The notes under the pieces are model-generated. The model searched no databases. It had not been told where the DNA came from and saw nothing but the letters and a program-made list of their open reading frames with translations. 27,647 nt of DNA from a virus. The stretch spans positions 1 to 27,647 of IMG/VR virus record IMGVR_UViG_3300045967_000213. One strand, 5' to 3'. The first letter of the stretch is position 1, and every line of letters begins with the position of its first letter. Of the stretch, positions 1 through 12,448 are shown piece by piece. A program made the position numbers and the translations under genes.

Positions 1-122
1 CTGTTGGGATCGTCGAGCGCAGCATCCACCTTTTGCCGTACCTGGTCGGGCGACATCGAGAGCGGCTTGCCGTCGAGGTCGAAGGCCATGTCCTCGCGCT
101 TGCGTCGGGCCTCACGTCCCAT
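1..122 (-). CDS. Small phage protein of unknown function, C-terminus off the window
   Basis: This is a partial leftward gene that leaves the left edge; 40 codons are visible, beginning MGREARRKRED. The visible part has a basic N-terminus followed by an acidic stretch containing LDGKPLSMSPDQVRQKVDAAL, which would form an amphipathic helix. Its ATG lies 8 bases inside the end of the next gene to the right, so the two are probably translationally coupled in one leftward transcript. Codon choice is GC-rich at third positions, like its neighbours. I do not recognise a family, and a function cannot be assigned from 40 residues. Confidence 0.55.
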   Translation of the reverse strand, partial: MGREARRKREDMAFDLDGKPLSMSPDQVRQKVDAALDDPN

Positions 123-348
123 GGTTGCCGCTCCCATTCTCCCGGTCGAGCAACCGCGTGATCTGCTGCGTCAACTCCAGCAGCACGGCGCTCTGTCGCC
201 GCTGCAGATCAGCGACCTCATCGAGGACGCCACGAATACGGACAACCCACTCATCGTGCTCAGCCATGCGTCGGTCATGATCGGCAATCGCCCGGTCGTG
301 GTCGCGGAGCCATTGTTCGTGCTGGTCGAAGCGTTCCTCGGGAGTCAT
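112..348 (-). CDS. Small histidine-rich coiled-coil phage protein
   Basis: The gene encodes 78 residues starting MTPEERFDQHEQW. Residues 9 to 35 hold a repeated pattern of about seven residues (DHDRAIADHDRRMAEHDEW) with His at regular spacing. A second amphipathic helix rich in Leu and Gln follows. This is typical of short coiled-coil proteins scattered through phage genomes; none has a firm function that I know. The ATG at 348 is chosen because the pattern starts there; an upstream in-frame extension to 435 would run antisense to the next gene. It overlaps the partial gene to its left. Its start is only 19 bases from that of the rightward gene at 368, so no separate promoter fits between them. 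Confidence 0.6.
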   Translation of the reverse strand: MTPEERFDQHEQWLRDHDRAIADHDRRMAEHDEWVVRIRGVLDEVADLQRRQSAVLLELTQQITRLLDRENGSGNHGT

Positions 349-3756: not shown

Positions 3757-5184
3757 TCAGGCCGCGCCCCGCGTCCGCTTGCGCTTCTTCGGGCGGAAGT
3801 TCTTCATCGCCGTGCGCAGCACGCTGGGCACCGCGCCGAGCGTATAGCGGCGCACCATCGGACTGCCGGGCGCGAGGCCGAGCATCTCGGCGGTGACCGT
3901 CGCGTTGCCGTGCGTGTCCTGAAAGACCTGCGTGCCGAACGAATGCCGGAGCACCTTCTGCGACATGTGCGGCAGCTTGAAGTGGGGGCGCGTCTTCTGC
4001 TCCTCGCGCTCGAGCGCCGTGCAGGCGCGCCGCCAGACTCGGCCGAGCGAGGACGTATCGACCTCGCCCCAGGCGCCGGTCTCCACGTAACGCCGAAACG
4101 CCTCACGCACCTCGGGACTGTCCATGGGCTTTTTCACTTCGGCGCGCGGCGTCGATCGCCGCGCCCCTTTCCCCCGTGGCGGCAGGATGTACCACTGCTC
4201 GTCGATCGAGATGTGCCGCGGCGTCAGCCGGCCGAGCTGCCTCGGCTCCATGCCGGTGAACGCCATCAGCTCGAGGCGGGCGCGCGCGTGCAATGGCTGC
4301 GGGACCTTGGCCGCGCGCACGGCCGTCGTCGCTGCCGGCAAGCGTGGGCGCTTGGGGTCGACCGTGCCGTGGCGGTGGCTGCGCCAGTAGCCGACCGGGG
4401 GCCGCGGGATGTGCAGCATCCGGCAGACACGCGAGAGGTAGCTGCCGGAGACGTCGTAGCGGCTGGCGACCGTCTGCATCGGGTGTTGCCAGATCTCCCG
4501 GTAGAGCGTCGGCCGGTCCATCGCCACGCCGCGCTCGTCGGGGATCATCGCCAGGATGCGCTTCAGCAGGTCGTAGGGCTGCCCCTTGGCGACCATCGTG
4601 GAGGCTTCCCACTCTTGGGTATCCTTCACCGGGTTGGCCGCGCTGCGGCCGTCGAGGCGCGTGTAAAGCGCCATCAGCGCCGAGCGGAACTTCCCCACCG
4701 TGGAGGAGGCATAGCCCTCGGCGAACCATCGCTGCAGCTGCTCGTCCATCTCCGTCGCGGTGAGGGCGCCGGGGCCGTGCCGGGGCCGGGTCCCAAAGGC
4801 CTCGACCCACTTCGCGACCTCCCAGACGCGCGTCTCGTAGGACGGCATGGCCTTGGTGGTTTCGAGGCCGAGGTATCGCGTGCCGTCTGCGGCGAGGCTC
4901 GAGGCCGCCGGCGCCGCCTGGCGCGGGGCCTGCTGGCGCCGCGCCTGGCGCAGTTTGCGGGCCTCGAACTTCGCCCCGTCGCGGAGCAGTGTCAGGTCCT
5001 CGAGCTGCTGCGCGACGGGCCGCCCATCATCCGGTCGGCGGAGCGGCACCTTGCGGCTCTTGCCCGTCTCGGGATCGGGCATCCGGGTGTAGACGCGCCA
5101 GCCGTAGTGGGTTTGCGCGATGCAGGGCGCGACCGATACCTCAACACCCGGCGGAATGTCGGCGCAGCGGGCGGCGAGTTTCAT
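3757..5184 (-). CDS. int: Divergent tyrosine recombinase (phage integrase) with inserted HTH domain
   Basis: A 475-residue enzyme expected to recombine attP with host tRNA-Asn. Residues 20-60 look like an arm-binding domain, 70-100 a basic linker, and 105-190 a SAM-like core-binding domain. Residues 222-270 hold an extra helix-turn-helix module (LYREIWQHPMQTVA, VSGSYLSRVC, IPRPPVGYW) known to me from unrelated bacterial proteins. The catalytic domain spans about 300-465: box I LELMAFTGMEPRQLGRL (306-320), Lys339 in RGKG, box II VLRHSFGT with Arg413, and Tyr447 in VRRYTLG. The usual Arg of box I is Glu313 (Arg315 nearby), the His of HxxR is Lys410, and the later LGH is LGL. Its ATG overlaps the leader stop (ATGA). 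Confidence 0.85.
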   Translation of the reverse strand: MKLAARCADIPPGVEVSVAPCIAQTHYGWRVYTRMPDPETGKSRKVPLRRPDDGRPVAQQLEDLTLLRDGAKFEARKLRQARRQQAPRQAAPAASSLAADGTRYLGLETTKAMPSYETRVWEVAKWVEAFGTRPRHGPGALTATEMDEQLQRWFAEGYASSTVGKFRSALMALYTRLDGRSAANPVKDTQEWEASTMVAKGQPYDLLKRILAMIPDERGVAMDRPTLYREIWQHPMQTVASRYDVSGSYLSRVCRMLHIPRPPVGYWRSHRHGTVDPKRPRLPAATTAVRAAKVPQPLHARARLELMAFTGMEPRQLGRLTPRHISIDEQWYILPPRGKGARRSTPRAEVKKPMDSPEVREAFRRYVETGAWGEVDTSSLGRVWRRACTALEREEQKTRPHFKLPHMSQKVLRHSFGTQVFQDTHGNATVTAEMLGLAPGSPMVRRYTLGAVPSVLRTAMKNFRPKKRKRTRGAA

Positions 5185-6755: not shown

Positions 6756-7304
6756 GTGAGTCTGCGACACCTCAACCATCTGCTCTACCGGATGCCTGGG
6801 CGCATCACCGATGGGCAGTTCCGGTTGCTGATCTATCTCGCCGACAAAGCCAACACTGAGGGCGAAGACATCTACCCGAGCCTCGAGCGTCTGGTGCGCT
6901 GGAGCGGGTTCGCACCGCGCTACGTCGCGCGCACGATCGAGGACTTCCGACTGCGCGGCTGGCTCCGCGGTTACTCGCGTGGCGGCGAGCTCCGGTGGCG
7001 GCTCGAGCTGCCTGTGGAGATCCCGACAGAAACGGTGGAAAACTTTCGTCAGGCGGATCGCGGATCCCGTTTTCGGGATCGCGGATCCCTGTTTGATGCT
7101 TCTTCGATCCATCGGTCGGACGACAGAAGTGATGCGGCCACGGCGGTTACAGAAAACGCGGCAGGGCCTCCCCCCTTTGATCCGTCCTTGATCCCCCCGG
7201 ATCGTCCCGACCTGGCTGACATCAAGGCCACGCTCGCCAACCTTAAGGCGCGCCTGAACGTCGCCCCCCAACAGCCTGCGAAGCGGAGGGGACGAGCGTC
7301 ATGA
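6756..7304 (+). CDS. O-like replication initiator with helix-turn-helix domain
   Basis: About 182 residues from GTG 6756, with GAAGG a few bases upstream. Residues 10-80 form a winged helix-turn-helix like those in phage O/DnaD-type replication proteins: ITDGQFRLLIYLADKANTEG, YPSLERLVRWSGFAPRYVAR, then TIEDFRLRGWLRGYSRGG and a strand. The middle (95-125) is encoded by the repeat cluster at 7055-7089 and contains DRGSRF/DRGSLF twice. The C-terminus (LADIKATLANLKARLNVA) is a helix that could contact a helicase or loader. Initiator genes that contain their own origin repeats are known from lambda. No helicase gene was found next to it. Confidence 0.58.
   Translation: MSLRHLNHLLYRMPGRITDGQFRLLIYLADKANTEGEDIYPSLERLVRWSGFAPRYVARTIEDFRLRGWLRGYSRGGELRWRLELPVEIPTETVENFRQADRGSRFRDRGSLFDASSIHRSDDRSDAATAVTENAAGPPPFDPSLIPPDRPDLADIKATLANLKARLNVAPQQPAKRRGRAS
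7019..7203. repeat. GATC-dense repeat cluster inside the initiator gene (candidate origin)
   Basis: Nine GATC sites fall in 185 bp (starting at 7019, 7056, 7063, 7077, 7084, 7106, 7179, 7190 and 7200), where fewer than one would be expected. GGATCGCGGATCCC occurs twice, 21 bp apart (7055-7068 and 7076-7089), and between them GATCCCG-TTTT-CGGGATC forms a perfect 7-bp hairpin. Iterons with a foldback inside the initiator gene resemble the lambda origin layout. Confidence 0.5.
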
Positions 7305-7648
7305 CGAAACCGCGCGTGCCGTGGGCGCAGTGGCCGCCAGCCGGAATGATGACGACGGGCGACGTCGCGAAGGTGTTGCGCTGTTGTCCGCGCACGGTGG
7401 AGCTGCTCGCCCTCGCCGGCGATCTGCTCGGCGAGGAGACGTGGGGCGGGCAATGGATCTTCCGGCGGCGCGAGGTCGAAGCCTTCCAGGCACGCACCGG
7501 CGGCCGGCTGGTGCCGACGAGGCCGCGCCTCTGGCGGCAGTTGCGGCTGCGGTTCCCGTCGCCGCATCGGGCGCAGCCGCTGCCGTGGGGACCGTTCCGG
7601 ATGCTACGGGCTAGCCTGCAGTCGCGCAAGGCACGTCGTGTCGGCTAA
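7301..7648 (+). CDS. MerR/HTH_17-type DNA-binding protein
   Basis: A 115-residue protein whose ATG overlaps the initiator stop (ATGA). Residues 15-65 hold the excisionase-like pattern MMTTGDVAKVLRCCPRTVELLA, then a loop with LLGEETWGGQWIFRRREVEAFQAR, which is the standard helix-turn-helix, wing and specificity helix of HTH_17 proteins. The remaining 45 residues are Arg and Pro rich. It is the second protein of this type in the early region (the first is at 6431), so one may act with the integrase and the other on transcription or replication. Confidence 0.62.
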   Translation: MTKPRVPWAQWPPAGMMTTGDVAKVLRCCPRTVELLALAGDLLGEETWGGQWIFRRREVEAFQARTGGRLVPTRPRLWRQLRLRFPSPHRAQPLPWGPFRMLRASLQSRKARRVG

Positions 7649-7853
7649 GAAGGTGTTGACCATTCGTGCTGGATCCGGAGGCTGGGTGACGAGTGTGGAG
7701 TATTCCATGCGCTGGTTCTGTTGGGACCAAGGCGAGCGTCACACGTTCGTAGAAAACTTGCTCGAACATCTGCGCGAGGAGCATCCGACCGAGTTTCAGC
7801 AGGCGGTGGATAACTGCAACAGGCAGCGGGCTCGCGAAAGTGGTGGATCGTGA
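7638..7853 (+). CDS. Hypothetical 71-residue early protein
   Basis: The GTG start at 7638 lies within the end of the previous gene; the ATG at 7708 (MRWFCWDQGERHTF) is an alternative start. The product has a beta-rich N-terminus and a helical end (FVENLLEHLREEHPTEFQQAVDNC). Codon third positions are less GC-rich than in neighbouring genes. The stop codon lies inside the first GATC hexamer array of the junction repeat at 7846. No recognisable family. Confidence 0.5.
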   Translation: MSAKKVLTIRAGSGGWVTSVEYSMRWFCWDQGERHTFVENLLEHLREEHPTEFQQAVDNCNRQRARESGGS

Positions 7854-7905
7854 TCGCGATCCGAAAGCCGTCACTTTGCTGAGGAAAACCCCCCATGTCG
7901 CATAA
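7846..7905 (+). repeat. Junction repeat copy 1 (GATC hexamer array plus ATGTCGCATAA)
   Basis: Three hexamers GATCGT, GATCGC and GATCCG (7846-7863) are followed, 37 bases after the start of the last hexamer, by ATGTCGCATAA (7895-7905). The TGA of the upstream gene is in the array, and the ATG is the start codon of the next small gene. The same design recurs at 8115 and 10102. Confidence 0.6.
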
Positions 7906-7945
7906 GCCGTCTTCCGTTAGACGAACAGGAGAATCGTTGCAATGA
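7895..7945 (+). CDS. 16-residue peptide gene at a junction repeat
   Basis: ATG 7895, preceded by GAGGAAAA, opens 16 codons (MSHKPSSVRRTGESLQ) that end in an ATGA overlap with the gene at 7942. The first 24 bases resemble the start of the gene at 10151 (MSHKRASV). It may be a coupling leader or a truncated paralogue of that gene. The sequence GGAG inside it probably serves as the ribosome site for the gene at 7942. Confidence 0.4.
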   Translation: MSHKPSSVRRTGESLQ

Positions 7946-8139
7946 GCACCGTCGAGAGCGTCGCGCAGAGTTTCGAGAGCTACCGTCAGCGGGTGATCCC
8001 CAAGGATGCCCCGCCAGTGCAAGTCGAGGAATGCCGGCGGGCTTTCTTCGCCGGCTCGTATTCCATGCTGATGAACATTGCCGCCAACATTGGCGACGAT
8101 TCCACGAGCCTGTCGATCTGGATCCGGATCCGGATCTGA
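7942..8139 (+). CDS. Small early phage protein with RRAFFAG motif, probably truncated
   Basis: A 65-residue helical protein, MSTVESVAQSFESYRQRVIP, then VQVEECRRAFFAGSYSMLMNIAANIGDD. The VQVxExRRAFFAGxxxM segment recurs in short phage proteins of early regions, usually with a longer C-terminal part. Here the frame runs into the GATC hexamer array, giving SIWIRIRI and a stop, so the native tail may have been replaced when the repeat was placed. It is translationally coupled to the 16-codon frame upstream. Function unknown. Confidence 0.6.
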   Translation: MSTVESVAQSFESYRQRVIPKDAPPVQVEECRRAFFAGSYSMLMNIAANIGDDSTSLSIWIRIRI

Positions 8140-8179
8140 AACCTGTGAGATTGGGTTTGTAAAGTCCCATGTCGCATAA
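8115..8179 (+). repeat. Junction repeat copy 2 (GATC hexamer array plus ATGTCGCATAA)
   Basis: Four hexamers GATCTG, GATCCG, GATCCG and GATCTG (8115-8138) are followed, 36 bases after the start of the last one, by ATGTCGCATAA (8169-8179), whose ATG starts the next gene. The upstream gene's TGA (8137-8139) is at the end of the array. It shares the 16-mer GATCCGGATCCGGATC with copy 3 at 10102. Confidence 0.65.
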
Positions 8180-8399
8180 CCCCGGTTCTGGTGACCTGCC
8201 GACCACTCACGCCGAGCTCGTGACGTTCACCCGCGAGCAGCGTGAGCGCGCGCAGGTCCACGTCTACCGCGAGGCGCAGCGCCTCGGCCTGGCGGGTGAC
8301 CCGTTCGTCACGGCGATCGCCGACGCGCTCGGCGACATCTCGCTCGCGGAGGCGTTGCTGGCGCTGATGCGGGAGGCAGCGAACCGTGACGGACGCTGA
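8169..8399 (+). CDS. Hypothetical 76-residue early protein
   Basis: The gene starts at the ATG of junction repeat copy 2 with no clear Shine-Dalgarno. The product, MSHNPGSGDLPTTHAELVTF, continues as a long helix (EQRERAQVHVYREAQRLGLA) and a second helical part (FVTAIADALGDISLAEALLALMREAAN). All-helical, acidic and soluble. No family recognised. Its end overlaps the next start by 14 bases. Confidence 0.58.
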   Translation: MSHNPGSGDLPTTHAELVTFTREQRERAQVHVYREAQRLGLAGDPFVTAIADALGDISLAEALLALMREAANRDGR

Positions 8400-8586
8400 A
8401 CGCATCGGTCGCGTCTACGTGTGCGATCAGGAGCATCCGCACTTCGGAGAGTCCGGCGTGTTCACCGGCAAGATGATTTCCCTGCTCGGCGAACCGATGG
8501 CGGAAGTGAAGCTCGAGCACTGTAAGCACGGTACGGATGGCTGTTTCGTGAAGAAGGGCCAAGTGCGGCAGGAGAAGCGACGATGA
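8386..8586 (+). CDS. Hypothetical 66-residue early protein
   Basis: The GTG at 8386 has GGGAGG about nine bases upstream. The product is beta-rich: MTDAERIGRVYVCDQEHPHFGE, then GVFTGKMISLLGEPMAEVKLEHC, then GTDGCFVKKGQVRQEKRR. It reads like a small SH3-like or KOW-like barrel that exchanges Gly-rich turns and strands, with three cysteines not in a zinc pattern. It overlaps its neighbours on both sides (ATGA with the next). Function unknown. Confidence 0.58.
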   Translation: MTDAERIGRVYVCDQEHPHFGESGVFTGKMISLLGEPMAEVKLEHCKHGTDGCFVKKGQVRQEKRR

Positions 8587-8936
8587 CGAAGATGCCCGGT
8601 GTGACCCTCGAGACGATCGGCGGCGGCGCCCTCTCCGAACTGTTCGCGGCGGAGCTGACGCGCATTCTCGCGAACATCGCGGACCCCAACACGGATCCTG
8701 CGGCGAAGCGGATCGTCACGTTCACCGTGAGCTTCAAACCGAACCGCGCCAGGGACGTGGCGGACGTGGAACTGAAATGCAGCTCGAAGCTCGCCGGCAT
8801 CATGACCGTTTCGACCCAACTATTCATGGGGAAGCATCAGGGCAAATTGATCGCGGTCGAGAGCGACCCGCGGCAAACGCCCCTCTTCGACAATCCCACG
8901 CCGACGGCGGCATTTCCGCGAAAGGTGGATGAGTGA
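8583..8936 (+). CDS. Phage replication-terminator-like family protein
   Basis: A 117-residue protein with the order LETIGGGALSELFAAELTRILANIADPNTDPAAKRIVTFTVSFKP in two blocks, then DVADVELKCSSKLAG and TQLFMGKHQGKLIAVE. This GALxE...NIxDPNTDPxxxRxxTxTIxxKP pattern is that of a phage family often labelled replication terminator protein in Firmicutes phage annotations; the label is not biochemically secure for this group. It sits downstream of the initiator and coupled by ATGA to the previous gene, and the next start overlaps its stop (TGATG). Confidence 0.62.
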   Translation: MTKMPGVTLETIGGGALSELFAAELTRILANIADPNTDPAAKRIVTFTVSFKPNRARDVADVELKCSSKLAGIMTVSTQLFMGKHQGKLIAVESDPRQTPLFDNPTPTAAFPRKVDE

Positions 8937-9673
8937 TGGACGGCGCAGCGATCGAACAAATCGTCGAACAGGTCCGTAGACCAATTGAACTGGCTGGCTA
9001 CCTGCTTCGCCCGAATGATTGGACCGTTGAGGACCCGGCGGCGCTGGTGAAGCCGGGGCCGACGCCGCGCCCGCTCGACGTGACCACGCTCGGGGCGCTG
9101 CGCGATTACCTCAAGGCGAACCGGGACGGGCTCACCCTGCCGGAGCTGATCGTCCATGTCGCGGGTGCGACGCAGGTCACGATCGGCGGCGCCCTGGCGG
9201 CGCGCACGCGGAGCCGTGAGGTCTACCTGACGGCGAAGGCGCTCGACCTGACGGAGGGCTTTCTCGGGACCTTCATGTCGCTCGAAAACTTCCTCATCGG
9301 CCTGCAGGTTCGGTTCGCGGACGACAACGACCGGCCGCGGCTCCTGGCGCTGTTGAGCAACGTGAAGTCCGAGCTGGTGAAGACCGCGCTCGATGACGGG
9401 AGGACGCAGGTCGTGCAGGCGCGCGCCGGCGTGGTGCTCGTCTCCGACGTTGCCGTCCCCAACCCGGTCACGCTGTGCCCGTTTCGGACCTTCCGCGACA
9501 TTCTCCAACCGGCCTCGCTGTTCGTCCTGCGAGTCAAGGACGGGAAGGCGGGCGGCGGGCCAGAGGTGGGGCTCTTTGAAGCCGACGGCGGCGCCTGGCG
9601 GCTCACGGCGATCGGGCGCGTAGGCGATTGGCTCCGCACGGAACTGCCGCAGGACGTGGCGGTCCTCGCGTAA
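8936..9673 (+). CDS. Uncharacterised conserved phage protein of the replication region
   Basis: About 245 residues from ATG 8936 (GTG 8933 is in frame just before it). The visible pattern is LGALRDYLKANRDGL, LIVHVAGATQVTIGG, then VYLTAKALDLTEGFLGTFMSLENFLIGLQVRF, DRPRLLALLSNVKSE, then NPVTLCPFRTFRDILQPASLFVLRV and GLFEADGGAWRL. This layout matches an uncharacterised phage family usually encoded beside the replication-terminator-like protein; here the two are adjacent and overlapping. Alternating alpha/beta, no catalytic motif apparent. No membrane segments. The function is unknown, but the conserved pairing suggests a joint role in replication or transcription control. Confidence 0.65.
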   Translation: MDGAAIEQIVEQVRRPIELAGYLLRPNDWTVEDPAALVKPGPTPRPLDVTTLGALRDYLKANRDGLTLPELIVHVAGATQVTIGGALAARTRSREVYLTAKALDLTEGFLGTFMSLENFLIGLQVRFADDNDRPRLLALLSNVKSELVKTALDDGRTQVVQARAGVVLVSDVAVPNPVTLCPFRTFRDILQPASLFVLRVKDGKAGGGPEVGLFEADGGAWRLTAIGRVGDWLRTELPQDVAVLA

Positions 9674-9685
9674 AGGGGAAAAGCG

Positions 9686-9850
9686 ATGCGCGATGTGCAT
9701 GTCGTGCCGGTCAACGACCTGCGGGAACACGCCTCGCGGCGGGACTGCTGGTGCCAGCCCCGGCTGATTCGCGAGGCGGGCGCGGCGGTCGTGGTGGTGC
9801 ATCAGAGCGCCGACGGGCGCGAGCTGGTCGAGCAGCACGGAGTGCAGTGA
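9686..9850 (+). CDS. 54-residue phage protein with CWC motif
   Basis: A short gene beginning with GGGGAAAAG four bases before ATG 9686: MRDVHVVPVNDLREHA, then RRDCWCQPRLIREAGAAVVVVHQSADGRELVEQ. The VxPxNDLREHxxxxDCWCxP signature recurs in very short phage proteins, and the Cys-Trp-Cys pair may bind metal or form a disulphide. Some relatives are longer with extra Cys pairs, so this may be the short form. It overlaps the next start (TGATG). Function unknown. Confidence 0.7.
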   Translation: MRDVHVVPVNDLREHASRRDCWCQPRLIREAGAAVVVVHQSADGRELVEQHGVQ

Positions 9851-10161
9851 TGATCCGCCACGTCTACGTTGGTGGCTGCTACGGTGACGACGGCCCGCCG
9901 GAGGTCGTCGCTGAGTCCGTTGAAGCGGCGATGCAGTCCCTCATGAAGGGCTACCTCCCGGCTGACCAATACGAATACGACGGCGGCGAACAGGTGCGCT
10001 GGGTCTGTCAGTTTGTGGACGGGTGGATCTTTCGCTGCACCGCCACCATCGGCACCTCTCAGCTCTACGTCGAACGGTTTGACGTGCTGGGCGAAAGCCC
10101 CGATCCGGATCCGGATCCGAAGGTGCCGGCAAAGGCTGGGAAAAAGGCCGATGTCGCATAA
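9850..10161 (+). CDS. Hypothetical 103-residue early protein with Asp-Pro repeat tail
   Basis: The ATG overlaps the previous stop. The N-terminal 80 residues look like a folded alpha/beta domain: IRHVYVGGCYGDDGPPEVVAESVEAAMQSL in two parts, then VRWVCQFVDGWIFRCTATIG and LYVERFDV. The tail reads ESPDPDPDPKVPAKAGKKADVA; the DPDPDP is simply the GATCCG hexamer array of junction repeat copy 3 in this frame. Its stop lies within ATGTCGCATAA, the start of the next gene. Function unknown. Confidence 0.6.
   Translation: MIRHVYVGGCYGDDGPPEVVAESVEAAMQSLMKGYLPADQYEYDGGEQVRWVCQFVDGWIFRCTATIGTSQLYVERFDVLGESPDPDPDPKVPAKAGKKADVA
10102..10161 (+). repeat. Junction repeat copy 3 (GATC hexamer array plus ATGTCGCATAA)
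   Basis: Three GATCCG hexamers (10102-10119) are followed, 37 bases after the start of the last one, by ATGTCGCATAA (10151-10161). The upstream gene's TAA and the downstream gene's ATG are both inside that 11-mer. After it, GC and CTTCCGT are shared with copy 1. The array is read in a different frame from copy 2, so protein coding does not explain its conservation. Confidence 0.65.
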
Positions 10162-10327
10162 GCGGGCTTCCGTGAACCCGGCGAAGCCAGCCAAGACGGT
10201 CGAGGTGCGGCTCGCCGATCTCGAGGCGCTCGAGGCGCGCGGCCTGATCGTCTTTGAGCACGACGAGGAGGGGCGCCTGCGCCTGCGCCTCCGCGAGCCT
10301 GCGCGAGGAAAGGAGTCCATCGAATGA
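10151..10327 (+). CDS. Hypothetical 58-residue early protein
   Basis: The ATG of junction repeat copy 3, with GGGAAAAAGG a few bases upstream, starts MSHKRASVNPAKPAKTVEVR. A basic N-terminus is followed by LADLEALEARGLIVFEHDEEGRL, a strand and short helix, and an Arg-rich end. The first eight residues match the 16-codon peptide at 7895. It overlaps both neighbours (11 bases upstream, ATGA downstream). No family recognised. Confidence 0.55.
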   Translation: MSHKRASVNPAKPAKTVEVRLADLEALEARGLIVFEHDEEGRLRLRLREPARGKESIE

Positions 10328-10506
10328 CGACGAGCGTGCATCCCGTCCTAGTCGCGTGCGTGCGTCCGGTCCTGACCTTCGGCTTCGTCACGCTGCCGCA
10401 GTGGTGGTGCTGGTGGCGCCACCGCCCGCCGACGCCGCAGGTCGTGTCCCCGCGGTGGCGCGCTCAGCGGCTCTACGAGGACGGCCTGCGGGGCGACCAC
10501 CCGTGA
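10324..10506 (+). CDS. 60-residue hydrophobic protein
   Basis: ATG 10324 overlaps the previous stop (ATGA). The product is MTTSVHPVLVACVRPVLTFG, then FVTLPQWWCWWRHRPP and a basic tail. Residues 8-24 could be one short membrane segment followed by a Trp cluster (WWCWW) at the interface. The ribosome site AGGAAAGGAG lies six to twelve bases upstream. No family recognised; the membrane character is inferred from composition only. Confidence 0.5.
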   Translation: MTTSVHPVLVACVRPVLTFGFVTLPQWWCWWRHRPPTPQVVSPRWRAQRLYEDGLRGDHP

Positions 10507-10751
10507 TCATCGCGATGGCCGGCGAATTCCTTGAGTGCTGCTGGGAGGACGACACCTTCGTCGGCATCGATCTGCATGGCCGTGTCCGCCTGCGTATCAG
10601 TTGGACCGGCTGGGGGGCGCTGACGCGGATCCAGCGGCTCACCCTGGTGTGGGACCTCTGCGCCGTCCTGGTCTTTCCCAGTTACTGGCACGCGAACGCC
10701 ACGCGGCGGCTCGATGAGCCGCGTCCGCTGCCGGCGGAGCCAGGCGCATGA
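10503..10751 (+). CDS. Hypothetical 82-residue protein
   Basis: GTG 10503 makes a GTGA overlap with the previous stop. The product MIIAMAGEFLECCWEDDTF is followed by VGIDLHGRVRLRISWTGWG, RIQRLTLVWDLCAVLVFPSYW, and a Pro-rich acidic end. It is strand-rich and fairly hydrophobic, with three early cysteines including CC. It could be a small beta-barrel; I recognise no family. The next gene starts inside its stop (ATGA). Confidence 0.5.
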   Translation: MIIAMAGEFLECCWEDDTFVGIDLHGRVRLRISWTGWGALTRIQRLTLVWDLCAVLVFPSYWHANATRRLDEPRPLPAEPGA

Positions 10752-10957
10752 CGGGGTTCGTGCTGCTGAAGCCGCCGCAGTGGTTCCTGCTGGTGGACTG
10801 GACCTGGGCGACCGCCGCCGACCTGCTGCGCTTTCGCTGGCCGGCGGTGGCGGTGTTCGCGTCCTACGCGCGCGCGGATCGGGCGCGTCGCACCTATGGG
10901 CGTCGGGCCTGGCGGGCGATGACGATCCTGCCGATCACGGGAGGGAACCATGGCTGA
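10748..10957 (+). CDS. 69-residue Trp-rich, probably membrane-associated protein
   Basis: ATG 10748 overlaps the previous stop. The sequence MTGFVLLKPPQWFLLVDWTW continues with ADLLRFRWPAVAVFASYARADRARRTYGRRAWRAM. Two short hydrophobic stretches (4-17 and 28-41) are separated by charged residues, and there is a positively charged end. GGGAGGGAACC near its 3' end is the ribosome site of the next gene. Together with the gene at 10324 it forms a pair of small Trp-rich hydrophobic proteins. Function unknown. Confidence 0.5.
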   Translation: MTGFVLLKPPQWFLLVDWTWATAADLLRFRWPAVAVFASYARADRARRTYGRRAWRAMTILPITGGNHG

Positions 10958-11168
10958 TGCCCCGGAGGACGATTCTCGCTCCCTGGCGGAGGCGCTCGAG
11001 GCCATCGAGGTCGTCGACGACGTCGACGTCGCCCGCTGCGAGGGCACGATCCATGTCTGGTCGTCGTTCTTCGCGCCGGGCGATGCCTGCGCCTGCGGGC
11101 GCTTCGCGCTCAGCCAGGGCGAGGACGGCCGGCTGCGCACGGTCGAGAGGACGACTCTCGATGCCTGA
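10950..11168 (+). CDS. 72-residue acidic protein with C-A-C-G motif
   Basis: A strong GGGAGGG precedes ATG 10950. The N-terminus is very acidic (MADAPEDDSRSLAEALEAIE, then VVDDVDVARCEG); then HVWSSFFAPGDACACGRFALSQ places three cysteines around a turn. The CxCG pair resembles half of a zinc knuckle; a partner could be the earlier Cys. The next small protein also has a CxCG pair, so the two may be related or may act together. Function unknown. Confidence 0.58.
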   Translation: MADAPEDDSRSLAEALEAIEVVDDVDVARCEGTIHVWSSFFAPGDACACGRFALSQGEDGRLRTVERTTLDA

Positions 11169-11403
11169 CCATCTGGCGCCGACGCCGGGGTCGATCGCCG
11201 CGCGCACGGCGCCGCCCGTGAGCGTCTTCTGTGCGTGCGGGGCGCAGTGGCACGGCGCGATCGTGGCGCGCGCGAAGGACACCATCGCCGCGCACCGGGC
11301 CCGCGCGAACGCGCATCATCCGGTCTGCTGGCTGGTGCCGCACCGGGTGTTCAAGCGGCGGTTTATCTGTCTCTGTCCGGACTGCAAGCGGGCACGGGGA
11401 TGA
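11161..11403 (+). CDS. 80-residue zinc-binding-type protein
   Basis: ATG 11161 lies inside the previous gene. The sequence has SVFCACGAQWHG (Cys-x-Cys and His), then IAAHRARANAHHPVCW, and FICLCPDCKRARG at the end with CxCxxC. Two Cys pairs at the ends and His residues between suggest a zinc-stabilised fold, possibly nucleic-acid binding given the Arg-rich composition. It forms an ATGA junction with the next gene. I cannot match it to a named family. Confidence 0.58.
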   Translation: MPDHLAPTPGSIAARTAPPVSVFCACGAQWHGAIVARAKDTIAAHRARANAHHPVCWLVPHRVFKRRFICLCPDCKRARG

Positions 11404-11654
11404 CACTCACGATCACGCGCACCGACATCATCGAGGTCGAGCCGGTGCCCGGCACGCCGCTCGCGGAGGCGAGTGCCGCCGCGCAGCTCGCCGCCTTCCG
11501 CGCTGCCTTCACGAAAACGATCTTCGATGACCATTCGGGCCTGGCGCTCGAAACGTCAGACGGCGAGTGGGCATACCAGTATGTCGACCACGTCAGCGTG
11601 CAAGTGGGCTTTGTGCCGGCGGACCCGCCGCCGAGAAATGGCGAGGAACCATGA
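11400..11654 (+). CDS. Hypothetical 84-residue protein
   Basis: ATGA-coupled to its upstream neighbour. The product starts MTLTITRTDIIEVEPVPGTP, then a helix AEASAAAQLAAFRAAFTKTI, then a strand part SGLALETSDGEWAYQYVDHVSVQVGFVP. It is acidic and looks like a small alpha/beta protein of the kind common in phage early operons. No motif or family recognised. The next ATG overlaps its stop. Confidence 0.55.
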   Translation: MTLTITRTDIIEVEPVPGTPLAEASAAAQLAAFRAAFTKTIFDDHSGLALETSDGEWAYQYVDHVSVQVGFVPADPPPRNGEEP

Positions 11655-12448
11655 GTTTGGCCTGCGACATCAGACCCACCGGCTCGCTCGAGATTGGCGC
11701 GCAGCGCGTCGACCGGATCGGGTTCTACAACGCGGAGGGCATGTTCATTGGATCGCTCTGCCTCGGCGGGCCGAAGGGCGACGTGCTCTTCGTCGACGGC
11801 GTCGAGGTCAGCATCTGCCAGGAGGGCGACCCGCCGCAGCTGCGGCTCGCCACGCGCGACCAGCAGGGCGTGCAGATGGGCGGCGTCGTGCAGGGCTGCG
11901 CGCTGCGCCTCGGCGAGGACGTGCATGAGAACCTGGCGCAGGTCCAGATCGGCGGCAAGGCCGATGACGCCCCACCCGGCACGTATCAGGGGTCGCTGCT
12001 CGTCAAGGTCCGCACGAACATGGGGCCGGACGAGGACGGCATGCAGACCGGCCTCGCCATCACGCCGGCCTACGAAGGCCGCATCTGGGGCGGCCTGCCG
12101 AACAGCCCGGGGAACCTCGGCAAGCATGCGAACGCCGGCGACGATGGGCCTTACATCTGCCCCGGGCACGGCGGCACGGCGCCGACGCCAGGTCCGGAGC
12201 AAGTCGACACGCTGTGGGCGCCGGACGGCTCGGCCTTCACCCAACAGCAGGGGCCGCCCGACTTCAACTTCGTTACCTACACGACGTCGGTCCCGTTCTC
12301 GAAGGCGCCTGAGCATGTGGTCGCGATCTTCGATGCCGTGAGCACGGTCGCGCGGCTCACCGCCGCTGAGGCGACGCTGCGCGACTACGACGCGCGGCTC
12401 GACCGGCTCGAGCGCAAGCACCGCCCGCCAGGGAAGCGGACGCGGTGA
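11651..12448 (+). CDS. 265-residue protein of unknown function with virion-fibre-like features
   Basis: By far the largest product of the early overlap chain, starting MSLACDIRPTGSLEIG. The first 200 residues are strand- and Gly-rich with few charged helices (IGFYNAEGMFIGSLCLGG, VLFVDGVEVSICQEG, PPGTYQGSLLVKVRTNMG, AYEGRIWGGLPN). The end is a coiled coil (VSTVARLTAAEATLRDYDAR and onward). This beta-then-coiled-coil make-up resembles trimeric fibre or decoration proteins rather than early enzymes. It lies far from the other structural genes and is ATGA- and GTGA-coupled to its small neighbours. I do not recognise a family. Confidence 0.6.
   Translation: MSLACDIRPTGSLEIGAQRVDRIGFYNAEGMFIGSLCLGGPKGDVLFVDGVEVSICQEGDPPQLRLATRDQQGVQMGGVVQGCALRLGEDVHENLAQVQIGGKADDAPPGTYQGSLLVKVRTNMGPDEDGMQTGLAITPAYEGRIWGGLPNSPGNLGKHANAGDDGPYICPGHGGTAPTPGPEQVDTLWAPDGSAFTQQQGPPDFNFVTYTTSVPFSKAPEHVVAIFDAVSTVARLTAAEATLRDYDARLDRLERKHRPPGKRTR

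What the first reader, a model, noticed from the sequence alone, without database searches (positions are those of the whole stretch)
7846..10161. Three copies of a gene-junction repeat: GATCNN hexamer array, fixed 36-37 bp step, then ATGTCGCATAA at a start codon
At 7846, 8115 and 10102 there is a run of 3 to 4 GATCNN hexamers. The distance from the last hexamer to ATGTCGCATAA is 37, 36 and 37 bp. In each copy the upstream gene stops inside the element and the downstream gene starts at its ATG. The array is read in different frames in copies 2 and 3 (IRIRI versus DPDPDP), so the DNA, not the protein, is conserved. This resembles the start-associated sequences of some mycobacteriophages and could be a regulatory element or a shared crossover sequence that lets small genes be swapped in and out. 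I know of no description for this group.
Basis: seen in the sequence. Interest (0 to 1): 0.78.

Follow-up and report, generated by a model that had tools for sequence, protein, structure and literature searches.

The report
Dif-like junction repeats bounding phage genes
A bacterial virus carries several copies of a short DNA element between small genes, and a near-identical relative has gained or lost a 1.6 kb block of genes at one of them; the element looks like a weak form of the sites where bacteria cut and rejoin circular DNA, so it may act as a swap point for genes.

Summary
The repeat is real. The window has three copies of a junction element: 3-4 GATCNN hexamers, a 30-31 bp spacer, ATGTCGCATAA, and a partly conserved tail. 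A near-identical virus contig (G002) adds a fourth copy and a variant of the second. Across four distinct copies, conservation falls into 11 + 6 + 11 bp blocks: 11/11 invariant, 0/6, then 5/11. That is the layout of a dif/Xer site. One arm fits well (ATGTCGCATAA as XerC arm or, read the other way, TTATGCGACAT as XerD arm; the orientation is ambiguous). The other arm is weak, but sits at the canonical 6-bp spacing.

Where they overlap, G002 and the window are almost identical. They differ by about 1.57 kb of genes ending at element copy 2, where 13 of their 14 substitutions also lie. A gene next to one element has 19 homologous loci elsewhere; 16 stop within four codons of where the array begins here, and none has the element.

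Best reading: cassette boundaries in a temperate podovirus, probably Xer-type crossover sites (about 0.5). Main rival: junction patches used by ordinary homologous recombination. The start codon looks largely incidental. My searches found no published description. Recombinase, host and activity are untested.

The parts
7846..7861 (+). element copy 1: array of three GATCNN hexamers
7895..7922 (+). copy 1 dif-like core: good arm ATGTCGCATAA (7895-7905), central 6 bp (7906-7911), weak arm TTCCGTTAGAC (7912-7922)
8115..8136 (+). element copy 2: array of four hexamers
8169..8196 (+). copy 2 dif-like core: ATGTCGCATAA / CCCCGG / TTCTGGTGACC; hybrid relative to G002 (left part differs, right part identical)
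10102..10117 (+). element copy 3: array of three hexamers
10151..10178 (+). copy 3 dif-like core: ATGTCGCATAA / GCGGGC / TTCCGTGAACC
8109..8175 (+). indel and substitution tract against G002: left breakpoint 8109/8110 inside gene B; 1573 bp of G002 absent here, ending at the left edge of the array; 13 of 14 substitutions at 8144-8175
7638..7853 (+). gene A, stops inside array 1
7895..7945 (+). 16-codon ORF opened by copy 1, stop overlapping the ATG of gene B
   Evidence: sequence
7942..8139 (+). gene B, shorter than in G002 (65 versus 165 aa, first 56 residues identical), ends IRIRI in array 2
8169..8399 (+). gene C, ORF from copy 2 ATG
9850..10161 (+). gene H, reads array 3 as DPDPDP and stops at the TAA of ATGTCGCATAA
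10151..10327 (+). gene I, ORF from copy 3 ATG
3757..5184 (-). phage integrase (phrog_1, E 1.2e-8), a possible alternative recombinase

Best explanation
The three copies belong to a family of gene-junction elements, about 77-100 bp long, in the early operon of a temperate podovirus. Each has a GATCNN array, a 30-31 bp spacer and a 28-bp dif-like core: a good arm ATGTCGCATAA, a variable 6-bp centre, and a weak arm TTCYGNNNNNC. The element sits at the 3' end of a small gene or gene group and marks a cassette boundary. Shown: the architecture, the column conservation, one gene-block indel that ends at an element with a substitution tract inside that element, and a gene whose homologues mostly end within four codons of where the element starts. 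Inferred: a tyrosine recombinase, most likely host XerC/XerD, makes the crossover at the core between sites on different phage genomes that share a central region, exchanging cassettes; the array is an accessory protein-binding stretch beside the good arm. Because that arm contains ATG and the element carries stops, it also works as a ready-made gene junction.
For: Conservation over four distinct copies: first arm 11/11 invariant, centre 0/6, second arm 5/11, 36 columns before 11%, 32 columns after 3%. With 36 published dif sites the XerD matrix fits the second arm best at offset 6 of offsets 0-30 in all four copies; summed -12.2 against -57.3 for the next offset (same outcome with 31 sites). 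The elements hold the five best dif-matrix hits in the window, counting both readings; the best unrelated hit is 7.3 against 12.4-14.4 forward. 0 hits at or above 11.5 in 100 Markov simulations, and in the real window 4 hits with a 6-bp centre against 0-2 for each of 15 other centre lengths. TGTCGCATAA-N6-TTNTGTTAA gives 52 stretches (53 sites, some near-duplicates) in viral contigs; at bases the query left open, 49 of 53 read TTATG and 34 of 53 exactly TTATGTTAAAT (no control pattern was scanned there). Published XerC arms include AAGTCGCATAA and ATTTCGCATAA (PMC2731167 passages). Window against G002: 13 of 14 substitutions at 8144-8175, the last two inside the arm, only one more in the remaining 19.4 kb. 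B5 homologues: 16 of 19 loci end at 151-154 aa, the array beginning at codon 151 here; 0 of 19 has the element.
Against: One arm is always poor. Read forward, the second arm has TTCC/TTCT where known sites have TTAT and a negative log-odds score. Read the other way, the good arm becomes a XerD-type TTATGCGACAT and the weak one a poor XerC arm; that reading scores higher in 3 of 5 elements (copies 3, 4, 2') and puts the weak arm at offset 6 in 3 of 4 copies. So the site's orientation is undecided, and the array's place 'on the XerC side' with it. The copies are related, so the offset test is not four independent tests. A divergent inner motif went with poor recognition in A. baumannii (PMC11705084 passages). 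The four central regions differ, so excision between these sites within one genome is not expected. Only one recombination event is seen; its left breakpoint (8109/8110) lies inside gene B and is not dif-like; its right limit cannot be bounded because the donor's right half is unknown. Three of 19 B5 homologues are longer (161, 164, 173 aa). No host, host dif or assay. The full element was found in no other phage.
Confidence: 0.5

Rival explanations
1. The element is a conserved gene-junction patch. Cassettes are exchanged at it by ordinary homologous recombination, and no site-specific recombinase is involved (works like T4 PeSL or lambdoid linker sequences).
For: The array and flanking bases give short homology between copies (copy 3 against copy 4: 73.5% over 102 bp). 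The single seen event is also compatible with this, and its left breakpoint is not at a core. One arm of the core is weak in either reading.
Against: The 11-6-11 pattern, with a fully variable centre between conserved arms at the exact dif spacing, is not needed for homology. Spacers are only 10-19 of 30 identical between copies.
Confidence: 0.3
2. The element is a translation or transcription control sequence of early genes, comparable to start-associated sequences, and its presence at a cassette edge is secondary.
For: It lies at or just before start codons. Copies 1 and 4 open short ORFs whose stops overlap the next ATG. By eye, copies 1, 3 and 4 have purine-rich stretches upstream of the ATG.
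Against: No sigma-70-like promoter or terminator-like site was found in 7600-10400 (phage-specific promoters are not covered). RNA and DNA folds are not better than shuffles. By eye copy 2 shows no clear Shine-Dalgarno sequence. The conserved bases extend past the ATG into an 11-bp block that resembles a Xer arm.
Confidence: 0.15
3. The copies are passive remnants of an old duplication, or low-complexity coding repeats, with no function.
For: (GGATCC)n arrays can arise as DP/GS/IR coding repeats.
Against: The array is read in three frames, ATGTCGCATAA is invariant amid diverged spacers, and flanking proteins share only element-encoded ends.
Confidence: 0.05

Closest known systems
Xer recombination sites and pdif (dif) modules of Acinetobacter plasmids (PMC10132070 and PMC11705084, passages)
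   Same: Genes bounded by dif-like sites; 11-bp arms around a 6-bp centre; several sites per replicon with differing centres; near-identical replicons that differ in the flanked parts.
   Different: Here in the early operon of a tailed phage; all sites in one orientation, while plasmid pairs are often inverted; one arm departs from the ATAA/TTAT inner motif; a GATCNN array lies 36-37 bp upstream; sites overlap gene ends and starts.
IMEX phages with dif-like attP (CTXphi, VGJphi, TLCphi; PMC5357621 passages)
   Same: Phage-borne dif-like sites with one good and one degenerate arm are known; the attP of TLCphi is highly divergent at the XerD arm.
   Different: Those sites integrate a whole phage at the host dif; here there are several internal sites and the phage has its own integrase.
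Start-associated sequences of cluster K mycobacteriophages (PMC3203893 passages)
   Same: Repeated, mostly in one orientation, at starts of small non-structural genes, with an upstream inverted repeat in about half.
   Different: Different sequence, a few bases from the start; here the invariant block contains the ATG.
PeSL elements of T4-type phages (Arbiol 2010 and Comeau 2014: titles seen only in the reference list of PMC4503421; content recalled)
   Same: Repeated junction elements said to mediate modular shuffling.
   Different: PeSLs are promoter-terminator composites; neither part was detected here.

Membership tests
dif / XerCD recombination site | 28 bp as 11 + 6 + 11 | tested here: met
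   conservation blocks 11/11, 0/6, 5/11 in four distinct copies; forward reading: best second-arm offset 6 in four of four; reverse reading: in three of four
dif / XerCD recombination site | at least one arm matching known Xer arms | tested here: met
   ATGTCGCATAA is among the top XerC-matrix hits of the window (p 7e-5); published arms; read the other way it scores 11.3 as XerD arm
dif / XerCD recombination site | both inner motifs, ATAA before and TTAT after the centre | tested here: not met
   ATAA met, but TTCC/TTCT in place of TTAT; read the other way TTAT is met, but GGAA/AGAA in place of ATAA
dif / XerCD recombination site | bound and recombined by XerC/XerD | not testable with these tools
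   needs host and biochemistry
pdif module | gene cassette bounded by dif-like sites that varies between near-identical replicons | tested here: inconclusive
   one indel, with an element at its right edge only
Start-associated sequence (cluster K) | 13-bp GGGATAGGAGCCC within a few bases of the start | tested here: not met
   sequence and position differ
PeSL | early promoter plus stem-loop terminator | tested here: not met
   no sigma-70-like or terminator-like site in 7600-10400; folds not better than shuffles; phage-type promoters are not covered by the scan

The most novel reading that the evidence does not exclude
A tailed temperate phage has built an integron-like or pdif-like cassette array in its early operon. 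Each small gene or gene group carries at its 3' end a Xer-type site with its own accessory array, and host XerCD exchanges these cassettes between co-infecting or prophage genomes, supplying gene turnover by site-specific rather than homologous recombination.
Probability: 0.4. Interest if true: 0.82.

Novelty: new variant of a known kind. Interest (0 to 1): 0.62.

Why it matters
How small accessory genes come and go between phages at clean gene boundaries is an old question, usually put down to illegitimate or homologous recombination. Multiple dif-like sites at the ends of small genes would give a site-specific route that borrows a widespread host machine, and would tie phage mosaicism to the dif modules that move genes between plasmids. 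It makes a direct prediction: crossovers fall within a 28-bp core, need a tyrosine recombinase, and pair sites with like centres.

Tried and rejected
Protein-coding repeat: rejected, because the array is read in three frames. RNA or DNA hairpin as the conserved feature: five elements folded, z between -1.4 and 0.4. Promoter or terminator: none found in 7600-10400. L001 from the first pattern scan: its two GATCs match the query but form no longer array, and a few such hits are expected by chance by my arithmetic. L020-L022: the same 11-mer opens a gene alike in the three and has no array upstream (by eye). L019: no other homology to the window, but carries ATGTCGCATAA-GACAGC-TTCTGTTAACC, not at an evident gene start; it was first found by a query that fixed part of it, so its nhmmer E-value is biased. 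TTCTG-type cores elsewhere: only L019 and L199 with the stricter pattern. dif-matrix scan of 122 relatives' loci: uninformative, 2008 hits at or above 10 against 2386 in shuffled sequence, because the matrix background suits only GC-rich DNA. Short core pattern in 39 relatives' records: one hit (G004/L220), about what chance gives by my arithmetic; in the window, G002 and G003 it finds 3, 3 and 1. Element pattern in genome contigs: 0 hits; terminase there: 111 stretches, none a relative; so host and host dif are unknown. Homologues of gene B: none in phages or held loci, so that the G002 version of B is the older one is inferred only from a weak match of its C-terminal part (phrog_35296, E 0.0043).

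Mended while checking: a note of '14 mismatches all in the element' was wrong, it is 13 plus one at 10515. The dif matrix used 31 of 36 published sites visible (left out: Caulobacter, Novosphingobium, Rhodoferax, B. mallei chromosome 2, and Yersinia as a duplicate); searches use all 36. I left the odds as they were, since the enzyme class does not depend on it. An early note that window and G003 make a simple circular genome is tempered: G003 seems to join two related phages.
Full report
WHAT IS THERE. The window is a piece of what I infer to be a temperate podovirus: a head-tail connector and a GP7-type major capsid protein, a terminase, an integrase on the minus strand, a repressor and a replication-initiator-like gene. 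The elements lie between the initiator/HTH genes and the packaging genes, in the presumed early operon. ATGTCGCATAA occurs three times, all on the + strand, each preceded by a GATCNN array whose last GATC begins 36 or 37 bp upstream.

RELATIVES. The combined pattern finds three viral contigs. L001 has only the two GATCs that the query asks for. G002 (L002) and G003 (L003) are the same phage, 99.9-100% identical to the window where they overlap: G002 from window 7815 on, G003 from 9730 on. G002 carries copy 1, copy 3, a new copy 4 and a variant copy 2' with ATGTCATATAA; G003 holds copy 3. A second pattern finds only these two again. Array plus ATGTCGCATAA was not found in 43 other loci of terminase relatives (one, L037, has a GATC array inside the terminase gene), of which only 15 reach far enough upstream to hold copy 3 and 9 to hold all three; nor in 79 other loci of relatives of gene 8936-9673 (80 of 448 were kept); nor in 19 other loci of relatives of gene B5. 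DNA searches of the phage collection with window 7300-10700 and 8110-8215, and of plasmids with 10096-10200, found nothing. The pattern is absent from genome contigs. So the element is so far known from one phage species.

THE CASSETTE EVENT. Window 7815-8109 equals G002 exactly; window 8119 onward aligns with it again, but G002 has 1573 bp in between. That block holds the rest of a longer gene B (165 aa against 65 here, first 56 residues identical), B2, B3, element copy 4, B4 and B5 up to the array of copy 2'. Of 14 substitutions over 8119-12274, 13 lie at 8144-8175, that is in the spacer and the first arm of copy 2; one is at 10515. From 12275 to the window's end there is none. The three hexamers next to the spacer are identical; the window copy has a fourth. 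So copy 2 in the window is a hybrid: left part from another element, right part shared with G002. The left breakpoint is inside gene B and not dif-like, so this was not a clean two-site exchange, and how far right the crossover lies cannot be bounded. The spacer of copy 2 was found in no other held locus, so the difference is not a shuffling of known copies. An assembly error is not excluded without reads.

GENE ENDS. Gene B5, just upstream of copy 2', has 19 relatives' loci elsewhere at 63-77% identity, some of them near-duplicates. Counted from the start of the match, 16 of 19 end at 151-154 aa and three at 161, 164 and 173. Here the first GATC of the array is codon 151 (...QVLV|DPDPDLKPAK), so 16 of 19 stop within four codons of it. 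None of the 19 loci has the element. The simplest reading is that the element took the place of the gene's stop. Upstream genes enter the arrays in all three frames: IRIRI (copy 2), DPDP (copies 2' and 3), GSRSGS (copy 4). Among 11 proteins flanking the elements, the only matches between different genes are the element-encoded MSHK.. starts and the DPDP tail, at E 0.09-1.

WHY DIF-LIKE. Anchoring the four distinct copies on the ATG gives 11/11 invariant columns, then 0/6, then 5/11 (TTC.G.....C), with 11% in the 36 columns before and 3% in the 32 after. A matrix from published proteobacterial dif sites (PMC2731167, passages) puts the second arm best at offset 6 in each of four copies among 31 offsets, with 36 sites as with 31. 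The copies are related, so this is not four independent tests. The full matrix ranks the elements above everything else in the window, 100 simulated windows give no such score, and other centre lengths give 0-2 hits against 4. TGTCGCATAA followed 6 bp later by TTNTGTTAA occurs in 52 viral stretches, 53 sites; I would expect about two in a collection of some 60 Gb, a size I assume, and I scanned no control pattern there.

WEAK POINTS OF THE DIF READING. One arm is poor in either direction. Read forward, the second arm departs from TTAT and scores below zero. Read backward, the good arm is TTATGCGACAT, a XerD-type arm, and the other a poor XerC arm; three of five elements score higher this way (copies 3, 4, 2'), two the other way, and the weak arm is best at offset 6 in three of four copies (also visible). 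So which arm is XerC is undecided. A defining feature, both inner motifs, is not met in either reading, so I do not file the elements as dif sites, only as dif-like. A divergent XerD arm has precedent in the attP of TLCphi (PMC5357621 passages), while one A. baumannii site with a divergent inner motif did not support catalysis (PMC11705084 passages).

HOW IT PROBABLY WORKS. In A. baumannii, plasmids with several Xer sites did not lose the flanked pieces but recombined with other plasmids at sites with like centres (PMC11705084 passages). The same logic fits here: four sites in one orientation with four different centres should not excise from each other, but a site could cross over with its counterpart in another phage. 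The hybrid copy 2, whose right part including the CCCCGG centre is shared, is what that could leave. The role of the GATCNN array is inferred: cer and psi depend on accessory proteins, and I recall that their accessory DNA lies on the XerC side. Host XerCD, the phage integrase or another tyrosine recombinase could be the enzyme.

RIVALS AND LIMITS. Ordinary homologous recombination at a conserved junction patch explains the event almost as well and is the main rival. A regulatory role is possible, but no sigma-70-like promoter, terminator or significant fold was detected. One event, no host and no assay keep confidence near one half for the Xer mechanism; that the elements are real DNA-level junction repeats, one of which bounds a variable gene block, is much firmer.

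LITERATURE. Searches for Xer/dif with phage and Acidobacteria, pdif and modules, the string TGTCGCATAA, PeSL, start-associated sequences, dif-like with tailed phage and cassette, gene cassettes with site-specific recombination in phage early regions and prophage with dif sites and Caudoviricetes showed, in the capped listings I saw, no description of several dif-like sites bounding small genes inside a tailed phage. The library holds open-licence papers only.

Noticed in passing
L018:1116-2555; L017:3456-12137 and L018:2809-8865 (record G003): G003 holds a second integrase (phrog_1, E 9e-41) and two long related proteins (2893 and 2018 aa, both phrog_9880) whose genes share 3.8 kb at 97.9%; its last 127 bases equal window 1-127. 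It looks like two related phages joined (tandem prophages, recombination or assembly).
   Followed up: partly
L019:2104-2131: A virus contig from a sample with a nearby IMG number carries ATGTCGCATAA-GACAGC-TTCTGTTAACC, with the same TTC-type second arm as the elements, without an evident gene start or other homology to the window.
   Followed up: partly
L148-L198: Fifty-one virus stretches besides L019 hold dif-like sites with the arm NTGTCGCATAA; several share flanks, and L170 has two in opposite orientation near one end. Possibly phages that use host Xer.
   Followed up: no
L220, minus strand, near base 1501 (record G004, a relative with 72% identical terminase): A single dif-like sequence GGATCGCATAA-GGCTGG-TTACGGTTACC; one hit in 39 records is about chance.
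   Followed up: partly
window 8583-8936: Gene matches PHROG 997, annotated as replication terminator (E 2.2e-24).
   Followed up: no
L023:1421-1900: Gene B5 has a 61% identical relative in the record of Methanosarcina virus MetMV, a very different recorded host.
   Followed up: no
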